From: Pseudomonas sp. RSB 5.4
GTDB lineage: Bacteria; Pseudomonadota; Gammaproteobacteria; Pseudomonadales; Pseudomonadaceae
NCBI RefSeq assembly: GCF_037126175.1
Contig: NZ_CP146986.1
Location: forward strand, 3,252,501-3,316,500
DNA length: 64,000 nt
Direction: 5' to 3'
A program made the position numbers and the translations under genes. Below, piece by piece: positions 4,051 to 10,894 of this stretch. Each line of letters begins with the position of its first letter. The first letter of the stretch is position 1. The notes beneath the pieces are model-generated. The model was not told the origin of the DNA, did no database searches, and saw nothing but the letters and a program-made list of their open reading frames with translations.

Positions 4051-4144
4051 AATGCTCTCAAAGTACCCAGCGGCACAGGGTGAAAAATATGCGCCAGCGC
4101 TTTATAGTGGCCGACCTCCGTTTCATCAAGTAGCGAAGCCCCAC

Positions 4145-6196
4145 ATGTCCGAACCACGCAAGATCCTCGTCACCAGCGCCCTGCCCTACGCCAACGGTTC
4201 GATTCACCTTGGCCACATGCTGGAATACATCCAGACCGATATGTGGGTGCGCTTCCAGAAGCATCGCGGCAATCAATGCATCTATGTCTGCGCCGACGAC
4301 GCCCACGGTTCGGCGATCATGCTGCGTGCGGAAAAGGAAGGCATCACCCCGGAACAACTGATCGCCAACGTGCAGGCTGAACACAGCGCCGACTTTGCCG
4401 AGTTCCTGGTCGACTTCGACAACTTCCACTCCACTCACGCCGAAGAAAACCGTGAGCTGTCGAGCCAGATCTACCTGAAGCTGCGTGACGCCGGGCACAT
4501 CGCCCAGCGCTCGATCACCCAGTATTTCGACCCGGAAAAGAAAATGTTCCTGGCCGACCGCTTCATCAAGGGCACCTGCCCGAAATGCGGCACTGAAGAC
4601 CAGTACGGCGACAACTGCGAAAAATGCGGTGCCACCTACGCCCCGACCGATCTGAAGGATCCGAAGTCGGCGATCTCCGGTGCCACGCCGGTGCTCAAGG
4701 ATTCCCAGCACTTCTTCTTCAAGCTCCCGGACTTCCAGCAGATGCTGCAGACCTGGACTCGCAGCGGCACCCTGCAGGACGCCGTGGCCAACAAGATCGC
4801 CGAGTGGCTGGACGCCGGCCTGCAGCAGTGGGACATCTCCCGCGATGCGCCGTACTTCGGTTTCGAGATCCCGGACGAGCCGGGCAAGTATTTCTACGTG
4901 TGGCTGGATGCGCCGATCGGCTACATGGCCAGTTTCAAGAACCTCTGCAACCGCACGCCGGAGCTGGACTTCGACGCGTTCTGGGGCAAGGACTCCACCG
5001 CCGAGCTGTACCACTTCATCGGCAAGGACATCGTCAACTTCCACGCGCTGTTCTGGCCCGCCATGCTCGAAGGCGCCGGTTTCCGCAAGCCGACCGGGAT
5101 CAACGTGCACGGCTACCTGACCGTCAACGGCCAGAAGATGTCCAAGTCCCGCGGCACTTTCATCAAGGCCCGTACCTACCTGGATCACCTGTCGCCGGAA
5201 TACCTGCGCTACTACTACGCGGCCAAACTGGGCCGTGGCGTCGATGACCTCGACCTGAACCTCGAAGACTTCGTGCAGAAGGTCAACTCCGACCTGGTCG
5301 GCAAAGTGGTCAACATCGCCAGCCGCTGCGCCGGTTTCATCCAGAAGGGCAACGGCGGCCTGCTGGTCGACAACAACGCTGCGCCAGAACTGACCGAAGC
5401 GTTCCTCGCCGCGGCGCCAAGCATTGCCGACGCCTATGAAGCCCGCGATTTCGCCCGCGCCATGCGTGAAACCATGGCCCTGGCCGACCGCGCCAACGCC
5501 TGGATCGCCGACAAGGCGCCTTGGTCGTTGAACAAGCAGGAAGGCAAGCAGGATGAAGTCCAGGCGATCTGCGCCACCGGCATCAACCTGTTCCGCCAAC
5601 TGGTGATCTTCCTCAAGCCAGTGCTGCCGTTGCTGGCCGCCGACGCCGAGGCCTTCCTCAACGTCGCCCCGCTGACCTGGAACGACCACACCACGCTGCT
5701 GGCCAACCACCAGTTGAACGAATTCAAACCGTTGATGACCCGCATCGACCCGGTAAAAGTGCAAGCCATGACCGACGCCTCGAAAGAAGACCTGACCGCC
5801 AGCCAGACCGATACCGGTGCCGCCACGCCTGCGGGCAATGGCGAACTGGCCAAGGATCCGCTGTCGCCGGAAATCGACTTCGACACCTTCGCCGCCGTCG
5901 ACTTGCGCGTCGCGCTGATCGTCAAGGCCGAACACGTGGAGGGTGCGGACAAGCTGCTGCGCCTGACTCTGGACATCGGTGACGAGCAGCGCAACGTGTT
6001 CTCCGGGATCAAGAGCGCTTACCCGGATCCGTCGAAACTCGACGGTCGCCTGACCATGATGATCGCCAACCTCAAGCCACGGAAAATGAAGTTCGGCATC
6101 TCCGAAGGCATGGTGATGGCAGCCGGCCCTGGCGGTGAAGAAATCTACCTGCTGAGCCCGGACAGCGGCGCCAAGCCGGGTCAACGCATCAAGTAA
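4145..6196 (+). CDS. metG: Methionine-tRNA ligase
   Basis: A 683-residue class I aminoacyl-tRNA synthetase charging tRNA-Met. It shows the HIGH variant HLGH near residue 25, a zinc knuckle [18 protein letters not shown] around residue 145, and KMSKS in [11 protein letters not shown]. The C-terminal EMAP-II/Trbp111-like tRNA-binding domain (from about residue 575, [16 protein letters not shown]) mediates dimerisation. Length is normal for the dimeric bacterial enzyme. Start at 4145 ([18 protein letters not shown]) is the conserved one; a longer in-frame extension has no support. Confidence 0.98.
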
Positions 6197-6328: not shown

Positions 6329-6898
6329 ATGACCGAACTTGCGCTTACGCTGATCAGTGCCGCCCTGCTCAACAACTTCGTGTTGCACTGGCCGCTGGGC
6401 GTCGATCCGCTGCTGGCCGGCAGTCGGCGCCAAATGCATGCGCTGGGGTTGGCGACGGCGTGCCTGATGCTGAGCGTTGGCATCATCGGTTACCTGATCT
6501 GGCACTGGCTGCTGGTGCCGCTGCAACTGCAGGCACTGCAGCTGTTTGTGTTCTTGCCGCTCAGCGTGCTGCTGATCGCACCGCTGCTGAAGCTGCTGGA
6601 TCGCGGGCTGCCTGACTGGCCGTTCGATGGGCTATGGCCGCTGTTGCTGGGCAATGCCGGCGTGCTCGGGCTGGCATTGATCAATGCGCAAAATGATCGC
6701 GGCCTGCTGCAGGCAACGGCGCTGAGCATTGGCGCCGGGCTGGGTTTCTGGCTGGTGCTGAGCCTGTTCAGCGACTTGCGCGAACGCACCGCGGACAACG
6801 ACATTCCTCTGCCCTTTCGCGGCTTGCCGATCGACCTGATCGGCGCCGGACTGATTGCAGTGATTTTTCTCGGATTCAGTGGACTGATCAAAACATGA
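6329..6898 (+). CDS. rsxA: Rnf-like electron transport complex subunit A (RsxA), lacking both cluster cysteines
   Basis: A 189-residue membrane protein with six hydrophobic segments and the family landmarks NNFVL (15-19) and [10 protein letters not shown] near the C-terminus. RsxA/RnfA pairs with RsxE to form the membrane core; in studied Rnf and Nqr complexes each contributes two cysteines to a [2Fe-2S] cluster buried between them. Here the first cysteine (LGLCP in E. coli) is LGVDP with Asp26, and the second (TNCAVLG) is GNAGVLG with Ala110. First gene of a run in which every stop overlaps the next start. Family identity is firm, but standard electron transfer through the subunit is doubtful. 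Confidence 0.9.
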
Positions 6899-8109
6899 GT
6901 CTGATTCAACTCATCGATGCCCTCCTGCCGCAGACCCAGTGCGGCAAATGCGGCCACCCCGGGTGCAAACCCTATGCGCAAGGCATCGTCGATGGCGAAC
7001 CGATCAACAAGTGCCCGCCGGGGGGCGACGAAACCATTGCCGCCCTGGCTGAACTGTTGAAGGTGCCGGTGCTGGAACTGGACATCAGCCGTGGCACGGC
7101 ACCGCCGCAAGTGGCGTACATCCGCGAGGCCGAGTGCATCGGCTGCACCAAGTGCATCCAGGCCTGTCCGATCGACGCCATCGTCGGCGCGGCGAAACTG
7201 ATGCACACCGTGCTGATCGACGAATGCACCGGTTGCGACCTGTGCGTGGCGCCGTGCCCGGTGGATTGCATCGAGATGCATCCGCTGCCGCTCGGCACCT
7301 TGCCGGTGGTCGGTGGCCTGGCGTCCAGCCTTGAAGAACAGCGCGCGCGCACGGCCAAACGCGATCATGCACGCCAGCGTTTTGAACGCCGCAACGCCCG
7401 CCTGCAGCGCGAAGAACAGCAGAAACAGGCTGAGCGCGAAGCCCGGGCACGGCGCGCAGCGCAACCGGCGGTGGCCACCCTCGATCCGGTGCAAGCCGCT
7501 CTGGAACGGGTGCGCGCGCAGAAAGCCGCGACCGCCGACGCGGCGCTGAAAAAAGCCAAGATCGACGTCGCCATGAGCCGCGCGCAATTGCACAAATCGC
7601 TGAAAGCCTTCGGCCATCCACCGACCTTCGAACAGCAATCGCAACTGATCGTGTTGCAACAGCAGTTCGAAGCCGCCGAACAGGCGCTGGCGAAACTCGA
7701 AAGCAGCACCACCACTGCTCCAGCCGCTGCGGCCCCGGCTCCGGCGAAGGACGCGGATCTGAAGCGGGCGAAAATCCAGTTGGCCATGCGTCGCGCTGAA
7801 TTGAAAAAGGCGCAGACCGCCGAAGCGCCAGCGGAGCAGATCGCCACGCTGGAACAGGCACTGCATGACGCCGAGCAGGCCCTTCACGCTGCCGAAGCGG
7901 CAAGTGAACAGCCTGCGCCTGATCTGGTGCGCGTAGAAAAGCGCCCGATCGACAGCCAGCTTCGCCAGTTGAAAACCGAACTGGCCTACGCCCGCGCCGA
8001 CCTGAACAAACTCGAACGCCGCGCCGACACGCCGAGCGAAGCCCTCGACAAGGCCCGCGCCCGACTGCAGGCGGCCGAGCGTCAGGTGCAAGATCATGTC
8101 GCCCCGTGA
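6895..8109 (+). CDS. rsxB: Rnf-like subunit B (RsxB): ferredoxin domains with a long helical tail and no N-terminal anchor
   Basis: A 404-residue protein. Residues 1-45 hold the RnfB [4Fe-4S] domain ([16 protein letters not shown], with Cys16, 19, 24 and 40), then two ferredoxin motifs ([12 protein letters not shown] and [12 protein letters not shown], about 82-123). Residues 150-404 form an Ala/Glu/Lys/Arg-rich coiled-coil-like tail containing three related units near 216, 286 and 353 (for example [18 protein letters not shown] and [18 protein letters not shown]). E. coli RsxB is about 190 residues and starts with a membrane helix; here the start ([17 protein letters not shown]) has none. 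The tail recalls the Ala/Lys-rich C-terminus of enterobacterial RsxC, which is absent here. Overlaps rsxA by 4 bases. Confidence 0.9.
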
Positions 8110-9079
8110 GGCACCGGATGATCGCCTGCAACAGGCGATGAAGCGGGTGCTGCTGGCCACGCTGCCGGGGCTGCTGGCACTGTTCTGGTTCTACGGCTGG
8201 GGGGTTTTGATCAATCTGATCCTGGCGGCGAGCACCGCGCTGCTGATCGAGGCTGGCGTCGCCCGGCTGCGCCGACAGCCACTGCAACCAACGCTCAGCG
8301 ATGGCAGCGCACTGGTCAGCGCGACATTGCTGGCCGCCGCCCTGCCACCCTATTGCCCGTGGTGGCTGACCGTTACGGCGATAGCTTCGGGCCTGCTGTT
8401 CGGCAAGCATTTATACGGTGGCATCGGCAAGAATCCGTTCAACCCGGCCATGCTCGGGTTTGCCCTGGCAATGCTGCTGTTCCCGCAACCGATGACCCAC
8501 TGGCCGGCGCATGGCATGAATCTGCAGGCCGCTTTTGCGCAAGTCTTGAATCTGGGCCAGGCGCCGGACGCCTGGGTGCAGGCCACCGCGCTGGACAGTC
8601 TGCGCATCAACAAAAGCCTGACCCTGGATGAGTTGTTCGCGGCCAACCCGGCGTTCGGCCGCTTCGGTGGACGCGGTGCGGAGTGGATCAATCTGGCGTT
8701 TCTCGCTGGCGGGCTGTGGCTGTTGCAGCGCCGGGTGATTGCCTGGCAAGCGCCGGTCGGCATGCTGGCCAGCCTGTTTGTCGTCAGCCTGCTTTGCTGG
8801 AACGGCTCGGGTTCCGATTCCCACGGCTCACCGCTGTTTCATCTGCTGAGCGGCGCGACCATGCTCGGTGCGTTTTTCATCATTACCGAACCGGTGTCCG
8901 GCGCCAAAAGTCCGCTGGCCCGGCTGCTGTTCGGGGTGGGTGTCGGCTTGCTGACCTACCTGATCCGCACCTGGGGCGGCTACCCGGACGGTGTCGCGTT
9001 TGCCGTGTTGCTGATGAATCTCGGTGTACCGGCCCTGGAGCGTTTTGCCGCTGCCCGCCAGACGCAGGTGCAATCATGA
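8096..9079 (+). CDS. rsxD: Rnf-like subunit D (RsxD), flavoprotein membrane subunit
   Basis: A 327-residue, largely hydrophobic protein, a little shorter than the usual 350. It keeps [12 protein letters not shown] and [20 protein letters not shown]. The flavinylation site expected for ApbE-type FMN transfer (Dxx(S/T)GAT) is present in altered form as DAWVQAT, making Thr164 the likely FMN attachment residue. It overlaps rsxB by 14 bases, so nothing of an rsxC gene remains between them, although rsxC lies here in canonical rsxABCDGE operons. Role: membrane electron carriage with RsxG. Confidence 0.9.
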
Positions 9080-9681
9080 ACCGCGCGGCTACTGTCGTGA
9101 CCCTTGTGCTGCTGGCCGGCGCCGGTCTCGGTTTGACCTATGTCGTGCAGCGCGTCAGTGCGCCGCAGATTGCCAGCGAGCAACGCCTGCTCGACAGCCG
9201 CAAATTGCTGGATGTGCTCGCGGCCGATGCCTACGACAATCAGCCGCTGGAGCAGCCGCTGGCGCTGACTGATACAACGTTGAGCCACAGCACGCTGCTG
9301 GCAGGTTACCGCGCAAGCAAATCCGGTCAGCCAGTGGCAGTGTTGTTGCGCACCCAGACCGAGGGCTACGCCGGGGTTATCGAACTGCTGATCGCCATCG
9401 ATGCCAACGGCAGACTGCTGGGAGTAAAAACCCTGCGGCAAAACGAAACACCGGCGCTCGGCGGACTCATCGGCGACTGGCCGAACCAGTGGCTGGCGAC
9501 GTTTACCGGCAAGTCGCGCAACGCACCTGACGACGCTGGCTGGGCACTGAAAAAGGATCAGGGACAGTTCGATCAACTGGCGGGCGCCACCATCACATCC
9601 CGCGCCACTCTCAATGCCATCCATGACGCTCTGCGCTACTTTGACGAGCACCGGGCAATCTTGCTGGGGACCGGATCATGA
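9076..9681 (+). CDS. rsxG: Rnf-like subunit G (RsxG), periplasmic FMN-binding subunit
   Basis: A 201-residue protein with one N-terminal membrane helix (residues 5-25) and a periplasmic FMN-binding domain. LRQNETPALGGLIGDWPNQW and FDQLAGATITSRA are conserved; Thr172 in AGAT is the likely residue to which ApbE attaches FMN covalently. Unlike RsxA and RsxE, this subunit retains its cofactor site. It overlaps rsxD by 4 bases and rsxE by 4 bases. Confidence 0.9.
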   Translation: MNRAATVVTLVLLAGAGLGLTYVVQRVSAPQIASEQRLLDSRKLLDVLAADAYDNQPLEQPLALTDTTLSHSTLLAGYRASKSGQPVAVLLRTQTEGYAGVIELLIAIDANGRLLGVKTLRQNETPALGGLIGDWPNQWLATFTGKSRNAPDDAGWALKKDQGQFDQLAGATITSRATLNAIHDALRYFDEHRAILLGTGS

Positions 9682-10259
9682 ACCGGCCGACGAATCTGAC
9701 GAACACTTTGACGCTGATGCTGCTGCTTGGCACCAGCGCGACACTGGCTGGCGCGCTGGGCATGCTGTTGATGTCGAGTGCCGTTGTGGGGATTTACAGC
9801 GTGTGCATCGCCCCACTGCGCTTGCGGTTATCTGGCAACAGCCTGTTGCTGGCCAGTCTGCTGCTGGCCGCCACTCTGACCAGTTGTGCCAATATCCTCG
9901 CGCAGCGCTGGGCGCTGCAGTGGCAACAGTCACTCGGGATCTATGGCGGGTTGATCGCCTTGCAATGCGTGGTGCTGGAATACAATGGGTTCTTTCGTCA
10001 GGCGCTTGCCCAGCGCCTGACGTTTTTTGGCCTGTCGAGCGCGCTGCTACTGGCGCTGGCCGTACTGCGTGAACTGTTCGGTCAGGGGCACATCGGTCGT
10101 GTTCTGTCCGAGCACTGGCAAGGACTGGTTCTGTTCAGCGACGGGCTGCACCTGCTGACCCTGGTTCCCGGCGCCTTCATCCTGCTCGGACTCCTGCTCG
10201 CTGCCCGCCAGGCCTGGACCCGCTCGAACGCTCTCTCCAAGGAAACACATCATCCATGA
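9678..10259 (+). CDS. rsxE: Rnf-like subunit E (RsxE), one of two cluster cysteines lost
   Basis: A 193-residue membrane protein related to RsxA/RsxE. QQSLGIYGGLIALQC matches the E. coli YQSLGIFIPLIVTNC segment and keeps the second cysteine (Cys97). The first one (LLGLCPLLA in E. coli) is replaced, LLGTSATLAG having Ser20. The protein is also shorter than the roughly 230-residue E. coli subunit. With RsxA's losses, only one of four expected [2Fe-2S] ligands survives. It overlaps nth by 4 bases. Confidence 0.87.
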   Translation: MNRPTNLTNTLTLMLLLGTSATLAGALGMLLMSSAVVGIYSVCIAPLRLRLSGNSLLLASLLLAATLTSCANILAQRWALQWQQSLGIYGGLIALQCVVLEYNGFFRQALAQRLTFFGLSSALLLALAVLRELFGQGHIGRVLSEHWQGLVLFSDGLHLLTLVPGAFILLGLLLAARQAWTRSNALSKETHHP

Positions 10260-10894
10260 ATGCCGCAAAACGTCTGGAAATCTTCCGCAGACTTCATGAA
10301 GACAACCCCGAGCCGAAGACCGAGCTGGCCTATTCCTCGCCGTTCGAGTTGTTGATCGCGGTAATCCTCTCGGCGCAATCTACCGACGTTGGCGTCAACA
10401 AGGCCACGGCCAAACTGTTTCCGGTGGCCAATACCCCTGCGGCGATCCACGCGCTGGGCGTCGAAGGGCTGTCCGAATACATCAAGACCATCGGCCTCTA
10501 TAACAGCAAAGCGAAAAACGTGATCGAGACCTGCCGCATGCTGGTCGAACTGCACAATGGCGAAGTCCCGCAGACGCGCGAAGAACTGGAAGCGCTGCCC
10601 GGTGTCGGCCGCAAAACGGCCAACGTAGTGCTCAATACCGCTTTTCGTCAGTTGACCATGGCGGTCGACACGCACATTTTTCGCGTGAGCAACCGCACCG
10701 GCATTGCCCCGGGCAAAAATGTGGTCGAGGTGGAAAAGAAGTTGATGAAGTTTGTGCCGAAAGATTACCTGCTCGACTCTCACCACTGGCTGATTCTGCA
10801 TGGTCGCTATGTGTGTCTGGCGCGCAAGCCACGCTGTGGCAGCTGCCGGATCGAAGATTTGTGCGAGTACAAACACAAAACCTCGGACGATTGA
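10256..10894 (+). CDS. nth: Endonuclease III
   Basis: A 212-residue DNA glycosylase/AP lyase that removes oxidised pyrimidines. The helix-hairpin-helix LPGVGRKTANVVL contains the catalytic Lys, and the catalytic Asp follows in VDTHIFRVSNR. The C-terminal [4Fe-4S] loop CLARKPRCGSCRIEDLC has the canonical C-x6-C-x2-C-x5-C spacing. It is the last gene of the rsx run, the usual rsx/rnf-nth linkage in gamma-proteobacteria. Confidence 0.97.
   Translation: MNAAKRLEIFRRLHEDNPEPKTELAYSSPFELLIAVILSAQSTDVGVNKATAKLFPVANTPAAIHALGVEGLSEYIKTIGLYNSKAKNVIETCRMLVELHNGEVPQTREELEALPGVGRKTANVVLNTAFRQLTMAVDTHIFRVSNRTGIAPGKNVVEVEKKLMKFVPKDYLLDSHHWLILHGRYVCLARKPRCGSCRIEDLCEYKHKTSDD

What the first reader, a model, noticed from the sequence alone, without database searches (positions are those of the whole stretch)
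6329..10259. Rnf-like operon without rsxC and with three of four membrane [2Fe-2S] cysteines replaced
Seen: rsxB and rsxD overlap by 14 bases, so the RsxC gene is absent. RsxA has Asp26 and Ala110 where E. coli has Cys; RsxE has Ser20 for the first Cys and keeps only Cys97. RsxD (Thr164) and RsxG (Thr172) keep FMN-attachment threonines. Known: RnfC binds NADH and FMN, and RnfA/RnfE (like NqrD/NqrE) share a [2Fe-2S] cluster held by four cysteines. Inference: this is a different electron path, possibly a SoxR-reducing or flavin-linked module fed directly through RsxB, and probably not a standard ion-pumping Rnf.
Basis: partly seen in the sequence, partly recalled or inferred. Interest (0 to 1): 0.78.

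Follow-up and report, generated by a model that had tools for sequence, protein, structure and literature searches.

The report
Stripped-down Rnf flavin electron relay
Many Pseudomonas carry a cut-down version of a well-known membrane ion pump that has lost its NADH subunit and its buried iron-sulfur cluster but keeps its flavin carriers, which suggests the pump was turned into a one-way electron relay across the membrane.

Summary
The operon is metG-rnfA-rnfB-rnfD-rnfG-rnfE-nth. No rnfC was found anywhere in this single-contig genome, and three of the four cysteines that hold the intramembrane [2Fe-2S] cluster (AE1) are gone. Corrections: the first RsxE cysteine corresponds to Met14, not Ser20; and rnfC is not simply missing, because the last ~270 residues of RsxB are homologous to the RnfC C-terminal tail. 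The same three losses occur in every RnfC-less Pseudomonas locus examined here (60 RnfA, 61 RnfE). Sodium-path residues are mostly lost, and RseC, an iron-sulfur accessory protein, is missing. Kept are all 13 RnfB cysteines, both FMN attachment sites, the riboflavin site (with a clade-wide Asp-to-Glu change) and the flavin transferase ApbE (110 of 110 RnfD/NqrB carriers, 7 of 39 other genomes). RnfB itself is absent in 11 of 61 loci, while A, D, G and E persist under purifying selection. Best reading: not an ion pump but a single-path flavin conduit (riboflavin and FMN in RnfD, FMN in RnfG) carrying electrons across the membrane, fed by the RnfB-tail chimera or another donor. Donor, acceptor and direction are unknown. 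A dedicated SoxR reducer is unlikely.

The parts
6329..6898 (+). rnfA/rsxA, 189 aa: membrane subunit with both cluster cysteines replaced (Asp26, Ala110); clade-specific Pro77, Trp141, Asp149
6895..8109 (+). rnfB/rsxB, 404 aa: Fe-S ferredoxin subunit with all 13 cysteines kept, no N-terminal membrane anchor, fused to the RnfC C-terminal tail
7291..8106 (+). tail of RsxB (residues ~133-404) homologous to the C-terminal tail of RnfC, the surviving piece of rnfC; the junction is approximate
   Evidence: 301 bits to RnfC of L050, best of 20 shuffled tails 5.6 bits
8096..9079 (+). rnfD/rsxD, 327 aa: FMN Thr164 kept; riboflavin-site Asn116 kept and Asp (A. woodii 249) replaced by Glu265
9076..9681 (+). 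rnfG/rsxG, 201 aa: FMN-binding subunit with Thr172 and Tyr98 kept; the only PF04205 protein found in the genome
9678..10259 (+). rnfE/rsxE, 193 aa: first cluster cysteine replaced (Met14), Cys97 kept; RnfE fold retained in the predicted model
4052..6196 (+). metG (methionyl-tRNA synthetase, named by eye), upstream flank; ORF as listed, true start not settled
10256..10894 (+). nth (endonuclease III), downstream flank, overlapping rnfE by 4 bases

Best explanation
This is a repurposed, reduced Rnf. Canonical Rnf sends electrons out through the membrane by one path (RnfB, then the AE1 [2Fe-2S] cluster between RnfA and RnfE, then RnfG-FMN) and back by a second (RnfD-FMN, RnfD-riboflavin, RnfC, NAD), pumping ions. 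Here the first path is cut: AE1 ligands, most sodium-path residues and RseC are gone. The NADH end, RnfC, has been deleted except for its tail, now fused to RnfB. The second path (riboflavin and FMN in RnfD, FMN in RnfG) is kept, and so is its flavin-loading enzyme ApbE. RnfA and RnfE most likely persist as scaffold. I propose that electrons from the RnfB-tail chimera, docked where RnfC used to sit, or from another donor in RnfB-less species, enter RnfD's riboflavin and leave through RnfG's periplasmic FMN to an unknown acceptor, without ion pumping. SHOWN (sequence level): losses, fusion, retentions, selection, co-occurrence. INFERRED: that current flows, its direction, donor, acceptor, and the docking of RnfB.
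For: AE1 ligands: RnfA positions 26 and 114 (E. coli numbering) Cys in 0 of 60, RnfE position 26 Cys in 0 of 61, RnfE position 109 Cys in 59 of 61 RnfC-less sequences, against 20 of 20 at all four in RnfC-bearing loci. These are the AE1 ligands in A. woodii, and their mutation abolished ferredoxin-dependent NAD reduction (PMC11889175, passages). Sodium-path residues mostly gone. Flavin sites kept: RnfD Thr164 (60 Thr and 1 Ser of 61), RnfG Thr172 (58 Thr and 3 Ser of 61); RnfD Asn116 61 of 61, RnfG Tyr98 61 of 61, riboflavin-site Asp changed to Glu in 60 of 61 (Asp in 20 of 20 RnfC-bearing); the same in 80 named loci, with one gap at the Glu. ApbE in 110 of 110 genomes with RnfD or NqrB and in 7 of 39 without; leaving out genomes with rnfC or NQR, 87 of 87 against 7 of 39. 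RnfG is the only FMN_bind protein found in the own genome and in 12 of 12 other Pseudomonas tested. RnfB's 13 cysteines kept in 49 of 49 alignable rows. RnfC-less RnfD+RnfG form one clade of 60 rows, SH-aLRT 100. dN/dS 0.08-0.20 for RnfD and 0.08-0.36 for RnfG in 19 RnfC-less pairs, 0.05-0.32 for RnfB in the 14 pairs that have it. RnfA residues fixed in the clade: Trp141 60 of 60 and Asp149 59 of 60, where RnfC-bearing loci have Ser (20 of 20) and Ala (19 of 20).
Against: No activity, expression or phenotype was found. rnfB is missing in 11 of 61 loci and the whole module in 41 of 149 genus genomes, so it is dispensable. RnfA and RnfE evolve much faster than in RnfC-bearing species (dN/dS 0.07-0.57 against 0.00-0.11), which also suits slow decay. 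Some pairs have high dS (up to 1.8), so single ratios are rough. Why RnfE Cys97 is kept in 59 of 61 is not explained by a pure scaffold role. Arg at the A. woodii R67 position is still present in 13 of 61. Residue equivalences to A. woodii were read by eye from sequence alignments. The co-occurrence statistics are not corrected for kinship. No conserved partner gene points to an acceptor.
Confidence: 0.5

Rival explanations
1. Slowly decaying remnant: the operon lost its function in the ancestor of the clade and is being eroded gene by gene (rnfC, then the cluster, then rnfB, then everything).
For: Module absent in 41 of 149 genus genomes; rnfB absent in 11 of 61 loci, in more than one clade; RnfA and RnfE under clearly relaxed constraint.
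Against: dN/dS well under 1 for all five genes in close pairs (19 pairs; 14 for RnfB); complete co-retention of ApbE; all 13 RnfB cysteines kept in 49 of 49 alignable rows; flavin sites kept and residues fixed clade-wide. A dead operon would not keep these over a clade this diverse.
Confidence: 0.2
2. SoxR-reducing module like E. coli Rsx, switching off the SoxR response with electrons taken through RsxB.
For: E. coli rsx with RseC and ApbE reduces SoxR (PMC11729352, abstract and passages). The own genome has a SoxR of 226.6 bits and a second family match of 183.7 bits. SoxR is commoner in RnfC-less genomes (78 of 89) than in module-less ones (24 of 41), Fisher p 4e-4 with no correction for kinship.
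Against: RsxC and RseC were both not found; 11 of 89 RnfC-less genomes have no SoxR over the cut-off and 24 of 41 module-less genomes have one; only 4 of 19 RnfC-bearing genomes have SoxR; the A-D-G-E form has no RnfB ferredoxin.
Confidence: 0.1
3. NQR-like quinone reductase: with RnfC gone, RnfD's riboflavin hands electrons to (or takes them from) ubiquinone, so the complex links RnfB or a periplasmic partner to the quinone pool.
For: In NQR the riboflavin of the RnfD homologue NqrB reduces ubiquinone directly, whereas in RNF it passes electrons to RnfC (PMC12174285, passages). The clade-wide Asp-to-Glu change at the riboflavin site fits a retuned flavin.
Against: A forward RnfB-to-quinone reaction by the known route would need AE1, which is gone. 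RnfD lacks the two extra N-terminal amphipathic helices that form NqrB's quinone pocket (PMC12174285, passages; window RnfD is 327 aa and aligns from its start with solved RnfD chains).
Confidence: 0.15
4. The cluster is still there, held by Cys97 and substitute ligands, and the complex pumps ions with another NADH partner.
For: RnfE Cys97 is kept in 59 of 61; RnfA position 26 is Asp in 44 of 60.
Against: RnfA position 114 is Ala, Gly, Val, Leu or (2 of 60) Thr, and RnfE position 26 is Ala, Val, Thr, Pro, Met or Ser in all 61; the only other common cysteine column is RnfE Cys70 (52 of 61), which is ancestral, since 19 of 20 RnfC-bearing loci have it. Sodium-path residues are mostly lost.
Confidence: 0.05

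Closest known systems
Rnf / Rsx complex (RnfABCDGE; E. coli RsxABCDGE, A. woodii, A. vinelandii)
   Same: Same order of the shared genes, nth follows in E. coli too, same subunit families for A, B, D, G, E, same FMN and riboflavin sites
   Different: No RnfC core, no AE1 cluster ligands, sodium-path residues mostly lost, no RnfB membrane anchor, no RseC found; some species lack RnfB too
'NQR/RNF-like' flavinylated systems (Meheust et al. 2021, PMC8238504; passages and section 13 read)
   Same: Keep one of the two transmembrane paths (RnfD/NqrB plus an FMN-binding protein), proposed for one-way electron flow
   Different: Those are RnfD/NqrB fused to an NqrF-type NAD domain, 127 genomes, primarily Actinobacteria and CPR; ours has no such fusion, keeps RnfA and RnfE, and uses an RnfB-RnfC-tail chimera or no RnfB
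Na+-NQR (NqrABCDEF)
   Same: Homologous D/B, G/C, E/D and A/E subunits; shares ApbE; in NQR too the RnfC homologue NqrA carries no redox cofactor, and NQR is thought to have arisen from an rnf copy that lost rnfB (PMC4014512, passages)
   Different: No NqrA, no NqrF, no AE1 cysteines; NqrB occurs mainly in the RnfC-bearing species (18 of 19)
RnfC-less operon of another gammaproteobacterial family (G241 L192, G362 L193; unnamed draft genomes, 90% and 95% complete)
   Same: rnfC core missing from the operon, remainder fused to RnfB, same metG and nth flanks
   Different: Keeps all four AE1 cysteines, RnfC's ferredoxin domain, the RnfB membrane anchor, the riboflavin-site Asp and RseC: most likely an independent loss, and an earlier stage

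Membership tests
Ion-translocating Rnf (ferredoxin:NAD oxidoreductase) | RnfC with NADH/FMN core and two [4Fe-4S] clusters | tested here: not met
   No rnfC found in locus or genome; only its tail remains on RsxB
Ion-translocating Rnf (ferredoxin:NAD oxidoreductase) | Four cysteines of RnfA and RnfE holding the membrane [2Fe-2S] cluster | tested here: not met
   One of four kept; ligands as in PMC11889175 (passages)
Ion-translocating Rnf (ferredoxin:NAD oxidoreductase) | Sodium-path residues of RnfA/RnfE (A. woodii T110 RnfA, R67 and E115 RnfE) | tested here: not met
   Window Leu107, Leu56, Gly104; in RnfC-less rows Thr in 1 of 60, Arg in 13 of 61, Asp or Glu in 6 of 61; in RnfC-bearing rows 20 of 20 each, Asp or Glu for E115. 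Equivalences by eye
Ion-translocating Rnf (ferredoxin:NAD oxidoreductase) | Covalent-FMN threonines in RnfD and RnfG, and ApbE | tested here: met
   attachment itself not shown
Ion-translocating Rnf (ferredoxin:NAD oxidoreductase) | Riboflavin site in RnfD | tested here: met
   Asn116 in 61 of 61; Asp replaced by Glu in 60 of 61; binding itself not shown
Ion-translocating Rnf (ferredoxin:NAD oxidoreductase) | RnfB with Fe-S clusters and membrane anchor | tested here: inconclusive
   Cysteines kept in 49 of 49 alignable rows; anchor missing, first cysteine motif at residue 16 in 43 of 50 rows (L041 RnfB with anchor for comparison)
Ion-translocating Rnf (ferredoxin:NAD oxidoreductase) | Ferredoxin:NAD activity and ion transport | not testable with these tools
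   Needs biochemistry
E. coli-type SoxR-reducing system (RsxABCDGE, RseC, ApbE) | RsxC | tested here: not met
E. coli-type SoxR-reducing system (RsxABCDGE, RseC, ApbE) | RseC | tested here: not met
   No PF04246 match at E <= 0.01 in G000
E. coli-type SoxR-reducing system (RsxABCDGE, RseC, ApbE) | SoxR and ApbE present | tested here: met
NQR/RNF-like flavinylated system (PMC8238504) | RnfD/NqrB membrane domain fused to a cytosolic NqrF-type NAD domain | tested here: not met
   RnfD is 327 aa with PF03116 only
NQR/RNF-like flavinylated system (PMC8238504) | Extracytosolic FMN-binding partner of a flavinylated RnfD | tested here: met
   RnfG with PF04205, the only one found in the genome; location and flavinylation inferred
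Na+-NQR | NqrA and NqrF, AE1 cysteines | tested here: not met
   No nqrA/nqrF in the operon; cysteines as above; no second RnfD/NqrB-type match in G000

The most novel reading that the evidence does not exclude
A whole Pseudomonas clade has turned the Rnf ion pump into a one-way flavin wire: the buried [2Fe-2S] path, the ion path and NADH docking are discarded, RnfB carries RnfC's tail as a new docking arm (or is lost), RnfD's riboflavin is retuned by a fixed Asp-to-Glu change, and electrons leave through RnfG's FMN to a periplasmic acceptor. As a side result, RseC, whose exact role has been unclear, follows the cluster cysteines and not RnfC (present in 8 of 8 RnfC-bearing Pseudomonas and 2 of 2 RnfC-less genomes that keep the cysteines, absent in 12 of 12 that lost them), so RseC may be the factor that builds this cluster, as NqrM is thought to do in NQR.
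Probability: 0.35. Interest if true: 0.8.

Novelty: new variant of a known kind. Interest (0 to 1): 0.62.

Why it matters
Database names label these proteins as Rnf subunits (names seen), so models of many Pseudomonas may wrongly give them a ferredoxin:NAD ion pump. The clade is a natural dissection of Rnf: it shows which parts can be removed together (AE1 cluster, ion path, RnfC core, RseC) and which stay together (RnfD, RnfG, ApbE), supporting the view that the two membrane crossings are separable modules. It also gives a direct test of what RseC does, and points to an unknown redox partner in these pseudomonads.

Tried and rejected
Rejected: (a) rnfC elsewhere in the genome. (b) Substitute cysteines at the cluster site: RsxE Cys70 looked new at first, but it is ancestral (19 of 20 RnfC-bearing loci have it). 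(c) A dedicated SoxR link. (d) A simple gap where rnfC was: the RnfB tail is RnfC's (control, RnfB ends of 19 RnfC-bearing loci reach at most 5.3 bits against RnfC). (e) One loss of rnfB: holding the 11 rows together is rejected at p-AU 5e-6 on the RnfD+RnfG tree, which needs 4 changes; the metG+nth marker tree needs 3. Both trees are quick searches. (f) rnfB elsewhere in the A-D-G-E genomes: only matches under the cut-off in 11 of 11.

Led nowhere: the RsxA model is weak in residues 1-29, which hold the first cluster position, so cluster-site geometry could not be judged; the RsxE model only confirms the RnfE fold. Literature: ten searches of open-access PMC papers, of which I saw the listings; I saw no report there of an RnfC-less Rnf or of lost AE1 cysteines in Pseudomonas, for six phrases meaning 'without RnfC', found 0 papers. 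Subscription papers were not searched. Papers opened, passages only unless stated: PMC12174285, PMC8238504 (id recalled; passages, section 13), PMC11889175, PMC4014512, PMC12052999, PMC11729352, PMC9124969 (section 26); PMC5764234, opened for an ApbE link, was irrelevant; PMC12718326 held none of my terms.

Rows dropped or partial: 80 loci were fetched; with the window they cover 80 of the 108 genus genomes with an Rnf-type RnfD (G022 twice); 28 were not fetched. L065 (contig end) has no RnfA. L081 (G034, with metG, rnfB, rnfD and nth in pieces) is in the residue counts but not in the RnfD+RnfG tree. The tail test used the 41 of 50 RnfB rows that match one exact motif; one of these (G045) scored 0 and one (G077) 19 bits, the other 39 scored 30 or more. 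RnfB cysteine counts leave out one row with gaps. An earlier motif count for the named loci used a loose pattern for RsxE Cys97 and was replaced by an alignment. RseC was tested in 28 chosen genomes, not in the whole sample; published data count against a strict rule, since 7 of 30 acetogens with potential RNF genes showed no rseC (PMC9124969, section 26). G241 and G362 are draft genomes, so an rnfC elsewhere in them is not strictly excluded.

Full report
WHAT IS THERE. The window is part of a single-contig 6,243,169-base genome (G000:C1:3252501-3316500). Closest named relatives by RnfA are Pseudomonas strains 93-95% identical, among them P. koreensis DSM 16610 at 94% (records very near the window may be left out there). 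Between metG and nth lies a tight five-gene operon: rnfA 6329-6898, rnfB 6895-8109, rnfD 8096-9079, rnfG 9076-9681, rnfE 9678-10259, overlapping by 4, 14, 4 and 4 bases. NCBIfam and Pfam assign the five families, but RnfA and RnfE score far under the curated cut-offs of their TIGR models (115.5 bits against 229.3; 58.2 against 213.4) whereas RnfB, RnfD and RnfG pass theirs.

RNFC. The only Complex1_51K (PF01512) match in the genome is NuoF, next to NuoE. RnfC_N (PF13375) gives one partial match, 23.9 bits (26.1 with neighbours in the frame, cut-off 25.6), in a frame that I read by eye as a biotin-dependent carboxylase/decarboxylase subunit; matches of this kind are common in the sample. TIGR01945 gives nothing better than 2.2e-15. 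But rnfC did not vanish cleanly. Residues ~133-404 of RsxB match the C-terminal tail of RnfC nearly to its end, with 301 bits against RnfC of L050; 20 shuffled tails reach at most 5.6 bits. In 41 RnfC-less RnfB sequences with a clear ferredoxin motif the tail scores 0 to 301 bits, 39 of them at 30 or more, against at most 5.3 for the ends of 19 RnfB proteins from RnfC-bearing loci. So the rnfC core was most likely deleted and its tail joined to rnfB. RsxB also lacks the N-terminal membrane helix: its first cysteine motif starts at residue 16 (the same in 43 of 50 RnfC-less rows), against residue 49 in E. coli (L041 RnfB with anchor).

CYSTEINES. In A. woodii the membrane [2Fe-2S] cluster is held by C25 and C113 of RnfA and C25 and C108 of RnfE, and mutating its cysteines stopped ferredoxin-dependent NAD reduction (PMC11889175, passages). 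I parsed 80 genus loci plus the window: 20 with rnfC, 61 without. At the four columns, RnfC-bearing loci have Cys in 20 of 20. RnfC-less loci have Cys in 0 of 60, 0 of 60, 0 of 61 and 59 of 61. RnfA position 26 is Asp in 44 of 60. Eighty named Pseudomonas loci agree: both RnfA cysteines and the first RnfE cysteine absent in 80 of 80, the second RnfE cysteine present in 79, one gap. The named and unnamed sets probably overlap in part (equal contig lengths).

OTHER LOSSES. The A. woodii sodium-path residues are mostly gone: RnfA T110 (Thr in 1 of 60), RnfE R67 (Arg in 13 of 61), RnfE E115 (Asp or Glu in 6 of 61), against 20 of 20 each in RnfC-bearing loci (equivalences read by eye). RseC (PF04246), part of the E. 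coli SoxR-reducing system and able to form an Fe-S cluster (PMC11729352, abstract and passages), is over its cut-off in 8 of 8 RnfC-bearing Pseudomonas, 0 of 12 RnfC-less and 0 of 6 module-less genomes tested (one of these six, G003, has a 19.9-bit match under the cut-off of 24.4). The CX2CX5C motif was seen in 9 of the 10 RseC loci; my filter found none in L209.

WHAT IS KEPT. FMN threonines: RnfD 60 Thr and 1 Ser of 61; RnfG 58 Thr and 3 Ser of 61. Riboflavin site: Asn116 in 61 of 61; the Asp (A. woodii D249) is Glu in 60 of 61 and Gln in 1, against Asp in 20 of 20 RnfC-bearing. RnfB: 13 of 13 cysteines in 49 of 49 alignable rows. ApbE: 117 of 149 genus genomes; all 110 with an RnfD or NqrB match have it, 7 of the other 39 do. 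Leaving out the 23 genomes with rnfC or NQR, 87 of 87 against 7 of 39, Fisher p 2e-23, not corrected for kinship (in G034 both rnfD and apbE are broken into pieces). In the own genome the one ApbE match is in an open frame of 344 aa, beside a gene for a Si-specific NAD(P) transhydrogenase, and RnfG is the only FMN_bind match; a single FMN_bind match was found in each of 12 other Pseudomonas tested, eight of them A-D-G-E genomes. A flavin-loading enzyme kept with this module says that the flavins matter.

EVOLUTION. On RnfD+RnfG the RnfC-less loci form one clade, 60 rows, SH-aLRT 100. On metG+nth four of them (G123, G028, G054, G013) fall among the RnfC-bearing species, so the module, or its neighbours, may have moved. 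rnfB is absent in 11 loci (A-D-G-E), with no rnfB over the cut-off elsewhere in those 11 genomes; the RnfD+RnfG tree needs 4 changes for it, and one clade is rejected at p-AU 5e-6. dN/dS in 19 RnfC-less pairs is 0.07-0.43 (A), 0.08-0.20 (D), 0.08-0.36 (G), 0.12-0.57 (E), and 0.05-0.32 (B, 14 pairs); in 4 RnfC-bearing pairs 0.00-0.03 (A), 0.02-0.05 (B), 0.04-0.09 (D), 0.06-0.16 (G), 0.05-0.11 (E) (simple pairwise counts). All stay under purifying selection, but RnfA and RnfE are strongly relaxed. RnfA also gained residues fixed in the clade: Trp141 60 of 60, Asp149 59 of 60, Pro77 59 of 60.

A SECOND CASE. In a class-wide sample (274 genomes) two genomes of one other family (G241, G362; drafts of 430 and 290 contigs) have strong RnfD and only weak RnfC matches. 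Their operons, also between metG and nth, have RnfB with its membrane anchor fused to RnfC's ferredoxin domain and a short tail, and all four AE1 cysteines; they have ApbE and RseC. So losing the RnfC core need not remove the cluster, and RseC follows the cluster, not RnfC. Six other class genomes (G283, G301, G363, G365, G369, G381), all drafts of 70-520 contigs, also had a strong RnfD without a strong RnfC; they were not followed, apart from a contig-end fragment of G301 (L194).

MECHANISM. Canonical Rnf runs electrons RnfB, AE1, RnfG-FMN, RnfD-FMN, RnfD-riboflavin, RnfC, NAD (PMC12174285, passages). With AE1 gone, RnfB cannot reach RnfG by that route; with RnfC gone, riboflavin has no NAD partner. 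What remains is a continuous flavin chain from riboflavin in RnfD to the FMN of RnfG. The economical reading is a one-way conduit of the kind proposed for other partial systems (PMC8238504, section 13), with RnfB's intact clusters, carrying RnfC's tail, as one donor at RnfC's former place. Species without RnfB must use another donor. I put 0.5 on this mechanism and above 0.9 on 'not a standard ion pump'. Donor, acceptor, direction and docking are inferred.

RIVALS. Slow decay is the main one; ApbE co-retention, the RnfB cysteines and fixed substitutions speak against it. SoxR reduction is weak: SoxR over its cut-off in 4 of 19 RnfC-bearing, 78 of 89 RnfC-less and 24 of 41 module-less genomes, and no RsxC or RseC. 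Quinone coupling through riboflavin is open.

NOVELTY. New variant of a known kind. Ten literature searches of open-access papers (listed in Tried and rejected) showed me no report of it; partial NQR/RNF systems are known, but of different composition.

Noticed in passing
L192 (G241) and L193 (G362), unnamed Gammaproteobacteria: RnfB fused to RnfC's ferredoxin domain and tail with the NADH/FMN core missing, all four cluster cysteines kept: most likely an independent RnfC-core loss.
   Followed up: partly
L200-L209 and G000: RseC/MucC is present where the Rnf cluster cysteines are (10 of 10 genomes tested) and absent where they are lost (12 of 12), suggesting a role in building the membrane [2Fe-2S] cluster.
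   Followed up: partly
L058, L059, L060, L064 (G028, G054, G013, G123): RnfC-less modules in species that metG+nth place among RnfC-bearing pseudomonads; G028 and G054 also have an NqrB-like match. Possible horizontal exchange. In one search the RnfD matches of G028, G054 and G013 contain one in-frame TGA, not examined.
   Followed up: no
L057 (G022:C1:533704-545175): A second Rnf operon (A, B, C, D, G, E with all four cysteines) in a genome that also has the RnfC-less one.
   Followed up: no
G021, G057, G060, G072, G082, G093, G103: A further RnfD-like protein (37-41% identity) next to a PF13375 match in a 480-551 aa frame, in several with an ApbE nearby: another Rnf/Nqr-like system.
   Followed up: no
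L109 (G000:C1:2537000-2550000), ApbE at L109:6062-7096, strand -: The single ApbE sits beside a Si-specific transhydrogenase gene and near a glyceraldehyde-3-phosphate dehydrogenase gene; in NQR-bearing relatives such as G148 and G041 NqrB lies about 4 kb from ApbE, so nqr may have been lost from this spot.
   Followed up: partly
genus sample: rnfC and NqrB co-occur almost perfectly in the genus (18 of 19 rnfC genomes have NqrB; 4 NqrB genomes lack rnfC).
   Followed up: no
window 9678-10259, RsxE Cys97: One of the four cluster cysteines is kept in 59 of 61 RnfC-less RnfE proteins although its three partners are gone; no explanation.
   Followed up: no
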